Source: Nitrosospira sp. Nsp2
GTDB taxonomy: Bacteria; Pseudomonadota; Gammaproteobacteria; Burkholderiales; Nitrosomonadaceae
DNA: 64,000 nucleotides
Assembly (NCBI RefSeq): GCF_003050965.1
Contig: NZ_QAOU01000003.1
Coordinates: 124,001-188,000, forward strand
Reading direction: 5' to 3'
Below the pieces are notes generated by a model. It had not been told where the DNA came from. It saw nothing but the letters and a program-made list of their open reading frames with translations, and did not search any database. The position numbers were made by a program, and so were the translations under genes. Shown here piece after piece: positions 2 to 1,954 of this stretch (position 1 is the stretch's first letter; every line of letters begins with the position of its first letter).

Positions 2-304
2 TTTGCCCTGCAGTCCTTAGACAAGGGCTATATGATAGCCTATGCTGATCGGGCCGATCCCGGCAAATACGGCATGGGCGCAAAAGGGGGCATGGGCGCA
101 AAAGCGGGAGAGGGAAAATGCGGCATGTCGCTGGCGGACACAAACAAGGACGGAAAGGTCACTAAAGAGGAATTTCTGAAGCATCACGAGATCATCTTCG
201 ACCAGATTGATGCCAATCACGATGGTTCTGTCGACAAAACCGAAGCCGATAATTTCGGGGGGGGAAAGTCGAACCCCGGTTCACCCGCTCCGATGAAGAA
301 GTAA
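2..304 (+). CDS. EF-hand RiPP precursor of an MNIO (bufferin/oxazolin-like) system, 5' end outside window
   Basis: The frame is open to the left edge, so the start and probable signal peptide lie outside; 100 residues are visible. The visible part begins FALQSLDKGYM, then has two GMGAK repeats, then the motif EGKCG with the only visible cysteine (codon at 119-121). Two canonical EF-hand loops follow: DTNKDGKVTKEE (137-172) and DANHDGSVDKTE (209-244), each with acidic ligands at loop positions 1, 5 and 12 and Asn at 3. Known: EGKCG motifs occur in precursor peptides whose cysteines are modified by DUF692/MNIO enzymes in copper-responsive operons. The gene lies 11 bases before such an enzyme. 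Inferred: this is the substrate, a periplasmic metal-binding peptide. An ordinary exported EF-hand protein is the alternative, but the EGKCG motif and the neighbours argue against it. Confidence 0.8.
   Translation, partial: FALQSLDKGYMIAYADRADPGKYGMGAKGGMGAKAGEGKCGMSLADTNKDGKVTKEEFLKHHEIIFDQIDANHDGSVDKTEADNFGGGKSNPGSPAPMKK
71..103 (+). repeat. 15-base direct repeat, period 18, inside the precursor gene
   Basis: The sequence ggcatgggcgcaaaa occurs at 71-85 and again at 89-103. In the reading frame each copy encodes Gly-Met-Gly-Ala-Lys, so the repeat places two evenly spaced methionines just ahead of the EGKCG motif. The identity at DNA level suggests recent in-frame duplication. Confidence 0.85.
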
Positions 305-315
305 CTCGTGGCGCA

Positions 316-1170
316 ATGGAGCCCCTAGGTGTCTCCAGCGTGGGGCTGGGTTTTCGGCAGGAATTGATTCCTGCGCTGAAGAGTCATGTCCCAGCCGTCA
401 TCGATTTTTTCGAGGTCGCCCCCGAAAACTGGATCGGTCTTGGCGGAAGGCATGGGCGTGATTTGCGCAGTTTCACTGAGAGCTATCCATTTGTTTGCCA
501 TGGTCTCTCCCTCTCGATTGGCGGCTCTGCGCCGCTGAACGTAACCCTGTTGCATTCGATTCGTCAGTTCCTGGATCAGCACGGAATTGTTTTATATACA
601 GAACATCTCTCCTATTGTTCTGACGACAGCGGCTACCTGTACGATCTACTTCCAATACCGTTTACCGAAGAAGCCGTAAAATATGTTGCTGCGCGTGTAC
701 GTCAGGTTCAGGATATTCTGGAGCGCCGCATCGCGCTGGAAAATGCCTCGTACTACGTGCAGGCTCCTGTTGCGGATATGAGCGAAATGGATTTTGTTCG
801 TGCGGTACTGACCGAAGCGGATTGTGACCTGCATCTCGACGTTAATAATGTCTACGTCAACAGTGTTAATCACGGCTACGATCCCGTCGAATTTATCCGA
901 GCCATGCCGGCGGAGCGTATCGTTTATATGCATATCGCGGGCCACCATCATGAAGGCGAGAATTTGATCATTGATACCCACGGAGCGAACGTCATTGACT
1001 CCGTATGGACATTATTGGATCAAGCCTATGAAATCCATGGCATAAGGCCCACGTTGCTGGAGCGCGACTTCAATATTCCCCCTCTTGATGAGCTGGTGCG
1101 GGAAATCCAACGCATAGAGGTCACCCAAAGCCAACACGCCAATCAAGGCCATGTCGTCGCCTCTTCCTGA
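316..1170 (+). CDS. bufB: DUF692 / MNIO family multinuclear iron oxidative enzyme
   Basis: A protein of 284 residues with the TIM-barrel DUF692 (MbnB/TglH/BufB) pattern. Candidate metal ligands sit in the expected order: FEVAPEN (about 32-38), CHGLSLS (His62), TEHLSY (His97), LENAS (Glu142), DVNNVYVN (Asp175), MHIAGHH (His206, His210), DTHG (Asp220, His222) and LLERD (Glu249). Known: these enzymes use a di- or tri-iron centre and O2 to oxidise cysteine residues of a peptide substrate, giving oxazolone/thioamide or thiooxazole groups. It follows the EGKCG precursor by 11 bases and overlaps the partner gene by 20 bases, so the three are almost certainly one operon. Inferred: it modifies the single EGKCG cysteine of the upstream peptide. 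Confidence 0.93.
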   Translation: MEPLGVSSVGLGFRQELIPALKSHVPAVIDFFEVAPENWIGLGGRHGRDLRSFTESYPFVCHGLSLSIGGSAPLNVTLLHSIRQFLDQHGIVLYTEHLSYCSDDSGYLYDLLPIPFTEEAVKYVAARVRQVQDILERRIALENASYYVQAPVADMSEMDFVRAVLTEADCDLHLDVNNVYVNSVNHGYDPVEFIRAMPAERIVYMHIAGHHHEGENLIIDTHGANVIDSVWTLLDQAYEIHGIRPTLLERDFNIPPLDELVREIQRIEVTQSQHANQGHVVASS

Positions 1171-1954
1171 GTTTCAACGCTTCCAGTATGCATTCGCCGC
1201 CCATCTCCGCGATCCGTACTCCAGCCCCTGTCCCGTTGGCGTTGAGACGCATCGCATGGCGGTCTACACGAGACTTGTTTACAACAACCTCGAAAGTTTT
1301 CTTCTGCCATGCTTTCCGGTCCTCAGAGAGGTGCTGGGGACGCAGCAGTGGGCGCGACTCGTAAGAAGCTTTCTGGCCACCCATGGCAGCCGCTCGCCTT
1401 TCTTCCGTCAGATTCCGGATGAGTTTATCCAATTCCTTCAAACTGAGGAGGCCGTACCCGCTACTTACCCCCCGTTCTTGCTGGAACTCGCGCACTATGA
1501 GTGGATTGAACTGGTGCTTTCCATATCGAGCCGAGTCCCGGACTGGGAGGCGATTGAACCCGAAGGCGACTTGTTGCTCCATCGCCCCGTACTAAATCCG
1601 GTGCTTGCCAACCTGAGTTATCGCTGGCCGGTGCACCGTATCGGCCAAGGTGAAGTTCAACCCGCAACGACCCACTTGCTGGTATTTCGCGGCCCGTCCG
1701 ACGAAGTGCAATTTACCGAGATAAACGCCTATACTGCGCGCCTGATTAACCTGCTTGAATCTGGCGAATACAGCGGTCAAGCAGCGCTTGAAATAGTCGC
1801 TGAAGAAAGCAACCATCCCATGCCGCAGCTAGTAATAAAGGGTGGACTGGACATTATGCATGACCTGCAGGCACGCGGCGCACTACTGGGGGTAATGAAG
1901 CCAGTGATTTCGCTCCTTGGGGCGCCCCCGGAAACCTGGGACAACCCCGATTAA
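1151..1954 (+). CDS. bufC: DUF2063 family partner protein of the MNIO enzyme
   Basis: A protein of 267 residues matching the two-domain DUF2063 family (MbnC/BufC/HvfC). The N-terminal helical part (about 6-100) carries the usual run of a short FQ start, an RMAVYTRLVYNN stretch and a following FPVLREVLG stretch. The C-terminal part (about 110-255) contains ELAHYEWIEL. Known: in methanobactin and bufferin systems this partner binds the precursor and presents it to the DUF692 enzyme. The start ATG lies 20 bases inside the enzyme gene, which implies translational coupling. No DoxX-type membrane gene follows, unlike many relatives; the next gene is a methyltransferase 40 bases on. Confidence 0.9.
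   Translation: MSSPLPEFQRFQYAFAAHLRDPYSSPCPVGVETHRMAVYTRLVYNNLESFLLPCFPVLREVLGTQQWARLVRSFLATHGSRSPFFRQIPDEFIQFLQTEEAVPATYPPFLLELAHYEWIELVLSISSRVPDWEAIEPEGDLLLHRPVLNPVLANLSYRWPVHRIGQGEVQPATTHLLVFRGPSDEVQFTEINAYTARLINLLESGEYSGQAALEIVAEESNHPMPQLVIKGGLDIMHDLQARGALLGVMKPVISLLGAPPETWDNPD

What the first reader, a model, noticed from the sequence alone, without database searches (positions are those of the whole stretch)
2..1954. MNIO RiPP operon whose precursor joins an EGKCG motif to two EF-hand loops
Seen: a peptide with one EGKCG motif and two complete calcium-type EF-hand loops, followed at 11 bases by a DUF692 enzyme and, with 20-base overlap, by a DUF2063 partner. Known: DUF692/DUF2063 pairs modify cysteines of EGKCG-type precursors in copper- or gold-responsive bufferin/oxazolin operons. 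Inference: this product would keep a folded calcium-binding domain beside a modified soft-metal site, which I do not know as a characterised arrangement. It could be a calcium-gated or calcium-stabilised periplasmic metal buffer.
Basis: partly seen in the sequence, partly recalled or inferred. Interest (0 to 1): 0.85.

Follow-up and report, generated by a model that had tools for sequence, protein, structure and literature searches.

The report
Calcium-binding protein with modifiable cysteine
A soil nitrifier has a small exported protein that joins a calcium-binding domain to one cysteine that two neighbouring enzymes probably turn into a metal-binding ring; the arrangement is already described in print, but relatives that lost the enzymes also lost that cysteine, which supports the link.

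Summary
The window cuts the precursor: the gene starts 113 bases to the left (GTG, 138 aa, signal-peptide-like start, one Cys in EGKCG, two EF-hand loops), followed by an HvfB-type MNIO (DUF692) and HvfC partner (DUF2063). The arrangement is not new: Antoine et al. 2025 (PMC12452194) call it 'Buf_EGKCG|EF-hand_5' and compare it with EfhP of P. aeruginosa, a calcium-binding protein whose gene is predicted operonic with DUF692/DUF2063 genes. New here is a natural experiment in the same bacterial family. In genomes with an HvfB-type enzyme, 73 of 73 extracted chimaeras keep Cys six residues before EF loop 1; in a sister genus without it, 7 of 7 have Tyr. There the EF part stays under purifying selection while the leader-like NPF...AYAD segment relaxes, and one genome keeps hvfC relics beside the gene. 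Against: G411 (99% complete) keeps the Cys with no MNIO found. This is one clade, so one or two events. Best reading: Cys78 is the MNIO substrate and the EF pair a separately selected calcium module. The modification, copper binding and calcium gating are untested. Known kind, moderate interest.

The parts
2..304 (+). Precursor (HvfA-like EGKCG/EF-hand chimaera), 3' part; the gene begins 113 bases left of the window (L002:7888-8304)
2..34 (+). Window part of the leader-like NPFALQSLDKGYM segment (it starts just left of the window); recognition role inferred
   Evidence: conserved in type B of the genus, relaxed where HvfB is missing
110..124 (+). EGKCG motif; Cys78 codon at 119-121, proposed MNIO target
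   Evidence: Cys/Tyr tally
137..172 (+). EF-hand loop 1, DTNKDGKVTKEE
209..244 (+). EF-hand loop 2, DANHDGSVDKTE
316..1170 (+). HvfB-type MNIO (DUF692), 284 aa
   Evidence: PF05114 354.6 bits, NF003818 431.1 bits over cut-off; PDB relative 3bww, E 4.3e-75
1151..1954 (+). HvfC-type partner (DUF2063 plus NGO1945_C domain), 267 aa
   Evidence: PF09836 86.6 bits, NF050145 266 bits over cut-off; PDB relative 3dee, E 7.8e-18

Best explanation
An HvfABC-type operon of the Buf_EGKCG|EF-hand chimaera kind. In the cytoplasm HvfC and HvfB bind the unfolded precursor, probably through the NPF...GYM segment after the signal peptide, and convert Cys78 with the preceding Lys into a 5-thiooxazole. Low cytosolic calcium would keep the EF pair unfolded, so that the chain stays modifiable and fit for Sec export; outside, the EF pair folds on calcium and holds one modified soft-metal ligand beside calcium site 1. 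Shown here: gene order, domains, and loss of the Cys together with loss of the enzyme. Inferred: the modification and its chemistry, the recognition segment, metal binding, and calcium-triggered folding.
For: Operon and family scores. Cys at -6 from EF loop 1 in 73 of 73 chimaeras from HvfB-positive genomes, Tyr in 7 of 7 of sister genus g273, which lacks HvfB-type MNIO. hvfC relics next to the Tyr copy in G394. EF part constrained without the enzyme, leader-like segment relaxed. In print (passages only): EGKCG peptides carry 5-thiooxazoles and bind copper (PMC13097082); decalcified EfhP is poorly folded and calcium folds it (PMC9132961).
Against: G411 (99% complete) keeps Cys at -6 with no PF05114, NF003818 or PF09836 match; G407 (80% complete) keeps a Cys at -7. 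The losses are one clade, one or two events. In a FonA variant every single Ala change ahead of the core was tolerated (PMC13097082), so no single leader residue was essential there. The AlphaFold2 model was unusable. One Cys gives no multi-site chelation.
Confidence: 0.55

Rival explanations
1. It is chiefly an EfhP-like periplasmic calcium sensor or signalling protein; the modified Cys adds a metal or redox input, and the protein is not a metal buffer.
For: EF part kept under selection without Cys or enzyme; only one Cys in the mature part; EfhP precedent (PMC4053335, PMC9132961, PMC11559002; passages).
Against: No signalling partner is known in this genome; multi-Cys tandem copies in 10 of 22 congeners fit metal binding.
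Confidence: 0.25
2. Enzyme loss and Cys loss in g273 are unrelated results of genome reduction, so they say nothing about the substrate.
For: g273 genomes are 1.0-2.0 Mb; a single clade, one or two events; G411 keeps Cys without the enzyme.
Against: The leader-like segment relaxes too while the EF part does not; hvfC relics lie beside the gene in G394.
Confidence: 0.12
3. HvfB/HvfC mainly modify another precursor in trans, and the Cys of the adjacent gene stays free.
For: Multi-Cys A genes in congeners; an orphan C paralogue in this genome (L037).
Against: In this genome the B gene is the only precursor beside the enzyme, and the other profile match found is C, also one-Cys; the B Cys is kept in 22 of 22 B loci.
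Confidence: 0.08

Closest known systems
[quoted passage not shown] 2025, PMC12452194; example WP_187711723.1)
   Same: Short EGKCG domain without 17-residue repeats, two EF-hands, N-terminal hydrophobic segment, gene before MNIO and DUF2063 genes (section 15 and passages)
   Different: No difference of kind found; this one has a single EGKCG. I did not see how many EGKCG copies the paper's chimaeras carry. 'Nitroso' does not occur in its main text
EfhP (PA4107), Pseudomonas aeruginosa
   Same: Two EF-hands, predicted periplasmic, predicted operonic with DUF692 and DUF2063 genes, EGKCG repeats (passages)
   Different: Four EGKCG repeats reported for EfhP (PMC11559002), one here; sequences were not aligned here
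Oxazolin (HvfABC) and fontiphorin, 'captophorins' (PMC13097082)
   Same: HvfB/HvfC-type enzymes and EGKCG motif (passages)
   Different: They have EGKCG repeats, fontiphorin seven 5-thiooxazoles; here one EGKCG plus an EF-hand pair
Buf1 (DUF2282) bufferin operons
   Same: Signal-peptide precursor, MNIO and DUF2063 gene order
   Different: Different precursor; the window MNIO is under the BufB cut-off (275.4 against 310)

Membership tests
Buf_EGKCG|EF-hand_5 chimaera | EGKCG motif ahead of two EF-hand_5 domains | tested here: met
   (one EGKCG)
Buf_EGKCG|EF-hand_5 chimaera | N-terminal hydrophobic segment / Sec signal peptide | tested here: met
   Hydropathy 1.64 and 1.60 over residues 6-24 and 11-29 and a VNA-A end by eye; no signal-peptide program was run
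Buf_EGKCG|EF-hand_5 chimaera | Gene next to MNIO and DUF2063 genes | tested here: met
HvfABC / captophorin | HvfB and HvfC equivalogs | tested here: met
   NF003818 431.1 over 360; NF050145 266 over 142
HvfABC / captophorin | Repeated EGKCG motifs | tested here: not met
   One Cys in the whole protein
HvfABC / captophorin | 5-thiooxazole on Cys and copper binding | not testable with these tools
   Needs mass spectrometry and titration
BufB bufferin maturase | NF050167 over its cut-off | tested here: not met
   275.4 bits, cut-off 310
EfhP-type calcium sensor | Two canonical EF-hand loops | tested here: met
EfhP-type calcium sensor | Calcium binding with a change of fold | not testable with these tools
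   AlphaFold2 model pLDDT 48.3, not usable
Lanmodulin | NF053806 over its cut-off | tested here: not met
   19.2 bits, cut-off 135; 6mi5 matches only over residues 79-119 at E 7.5e-5

The most novel reading that the evidence does not exclude
The modified Cys lies in what should be the entering segment of EF-hand 1, so one thiooxazole and one calcium site form a coupled unit: calcium folding after export positions or exposes the soft-metal ligand, or metal binding tunes calcium affinity. The product would be a folded protein with one ring rather than a peptide chelator, and HvfB/HvfC would read an NPF...GYM segment placed after a Sec signal peptide.
Probability: 0.25. Interest if true: 0.75.

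Novelty: new member of a known kind. Interest (0 to 1): 0.48.

Why it matters
In the passages I read, EF-hand chimaeras are assigned as MNIO substrates by motif and gene neighbourhood. Joint loss of the enzyme, the target Cys and the leader-like segment, with the EF pair kept, is evolutionary evidence that the Cys is the substrate and that the calcium module has a use of its own. It offers a short one-Cys protein from a nitrifier in which to test whether EfhP-like calcium proteins are also thiooxazole proteins.

Tried and rejected
AlphaFold2 on the window part of the precursor with four relatives gave mean pLDDT 48.3; no fold search was made. A fixed six-residue gap from Cys to EF loop 1 is not universal outside the family: of 7 MNIO-adjacent EF chimaeras in the class sample 4 have it and 3 have 8 or 9; of the orphans with EGKCG and EF-hands L116 has 6, L117 8, L128 10 and L122 16, all four in genomes with an HvfB-type gene elsewhere. 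Lanmodulin and XopAW models score far below cut-off. No Rfam family and no sigma-70 consensus upstream. Searching the genome with the two conserved upstream blocks gave one exact copy of each, plus one three-mismatch match to the first on another contig, so no regulon. The MNIO genes of G392 and G393 were considered as cognate and rejected: a DUF2282-like gene precedes each; for G392 it was confirmed (PF10048 83.4 bits, cut-off 22.4) and its MNIO part fits BufB better than HvfB (231.1 against 155.7 bits, both under cut-off, 200-aa part only); the G393 pair was judged by likeness to G392. Limits: the tree has 81 rows because one row of G003 was lost to a name collision; Cys loss is one change on the best tree with support 59/79 and in 60% of 200 bootstrap trees. 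In one search N-terminal segments were compared without gaps and synonymous sites are near saturation. Loci were chosen, not random: 59 different class loci from the capped list, most with leader similarity (one region was fetched twice); in g2 the nine stronger full-length hits were tallied, while other EF-hand hits read (L192-L194, L198, L204-L209; no EGKCG) were left out. My EF pattern misread five loci (L019, L020, L022-L024); one search counts them with a corrected pattern.

Full report
What is there. The window starts inside the first gene. Read leftward in its own genome, the precursor is 138 aa, L002:7888-8304: a signal-peptide-like start, an NPFALQSLDKGYM segment, a Gly/Lys/Met-rich stretch, EGKCG with the only Cys, and two canonical EF-hand loops. 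An HvfB-type MNIO and an HvfC-type partner follow; PDB relatives are 3bww and 3dee. To the left lies dksA on the other strand, 466 bases away; two frames of 83 and 84 aa in that gap hold no EGKCG. The genome has one PF05114 gene.

What is known. Antoine et al. 2025 (PMC12452194; outline with abstract, section 15 and passages seen) describe EGKCG domains fused to two EF-hand_5 domains, link them to MNIO genes, and suggest roles in calcium homeostasis or signalling as with EfhP. EfhP's gene is suggested to be operonic with DUF692 and DUF2063 genes (PMC4053335, passages); EfhP binds calcium with Kd 13.7 uM and is poorly folded without it (PMC9132961, passages) and is said to hold four EGKCG repeats (PMC11559002, passage). 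EGKCG peptides carry 5-thiooxazoles and bind copper (PMC13097082, passages). So the finding belongs to a described kind. Nitrosospira with MNIO gave 0 papers. EF-hand with bufferin gave 247 papers, because the term also matches 'buffering'; of the 10 listed one, PMC12452194, is of this field. In the listings I saw no title or abstract start about loss of these enzymes; that is not a full search.

Relatives. 23 of 23 genomes of the genus match the precursor. Three types can be told apart: B, one Cys in the mature part, directly before hvfB, in 22 genomes; A, several Cys with or without EF-hands, in tandem before B in 10 of 22; C, away from any MNIO in the stretches read, with one or a few Cys and often Gly/Tyr-rich repeats. 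In G019 the gene before hvfB is A-like. Short A copies in G002, G017 and G021 have no EF-hands, so the two modules can come apart both ways. At class level 128 of 369 genomes match the profile at E 1e-6, plain EF-hand proteins included; of 61 matching ORFs in the 59 loci that I took, 38 are MNIO-adjacent and 7 of these 38 have EF-hands.

Natural experiment. In the family 97 of 125 genomes have a PF05114 gene. Among extracted EF chimaeras, those of genomes with an HvfB-type enzyme have Cys at -6 from loop 1 in 73 of 73 (g1 54 in 23 genomes, g2 7 in 7, g274 12 in 8). In sister genus g273 the position is Tyr in 7 of 7 (7 of its 8 genomes; no EF chimaera was found in G392). Six of these 8 genomes have neither PF05114 nor PF09836; G392 and G393 have both, but as a divergent MNIO behind a DUF2282-like precursor at another place. 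In G394 the Tyr-bearing gene is followed at about 95 bases, on the same strand, by two hvfC fragments (E 0.001 and 2e-8), and tblastn at E 1 finds no hvfB in the 12 kb taken. Against this, two g2 genomes without an MNIO match keep a Cys: G411 at -6 (99% complete) and G407 at -7 (80%). On the tree the g273 rows fall with type B (100/99), and the loss needs one change on the best tree, two being possible.

Selection. Mean pN/pS of the EF part is 0.102/0.723 in g273 (21 pairs) and 0.086/0.660 in g1 type B (229 of 231 pairs, near-identical ones left out); for the NPF...AYAD segment it is 0.410/0.566 and 0.224/0.781. So without the enzyme the EF part stays constrained while the segment after the signal peptide is relaxed. 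The Gly at position 6 of loop 1 is changed in 5 of 7 g273 copies, but also in 5 of 22 enzyme-bearing B copies.

Mechanism. Modification in the cytoplasm, Sec export, calcium-triggered folding outside, and one soft-metal ligand beside calcium site 1 is my best reading. Only the anatomy and the linked losses are shown; the rest follows from the cited chemistry and from inference. An EfhP-like sensor is the main rival. Control of expression is unknown: two conserved blocks lie upstream, one exact copy of each in the genome.

Noticed in passing
L002:7682-7700 and L002:7847-7863 (left of the window): Two conserved non-coding blocks before the precursor: CACGAATTCTTGCAGAATT (GAATTC-N5-GAATTC), whose core is exact in 12 of 22 B loci, those without a tandem A gene; and TTGTGACATAATATTTT just before the ribosome site, core exact in 19 of 22. 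Regulator unknown.
   Followed up: partly
L037 (own genome C5:61167-61562, minus strand): Orphan one-Cys paralogue (type C) with YGEKKDGYG repeats and two EF-hands, beside a DUF-like ATPase frame and no MNIO; congeners carry similar copies.
   Followed up: partly
L215 and L216 (genomes G392, G393): Buf1-like operon (DUF2282-like precursor, divergent MNIO, DUF2063), and a separate protein with a leader-like start resembling a Spy/LTXXQ periplasmic protein (name recalled, not tested).
   Followed up: partly
L192-L194, L198, L204-L209 (g2 genomes): His-rich exported EF-hand proteins without EGKCG, weakly matching the chimaera profile; a separate family that may bind metals.
   Followed up: no
L220 (G002:C10:513159-513794): Second, divergent MNIO-like match inside a 497-aa open frame in one congener.
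   Followed up: no
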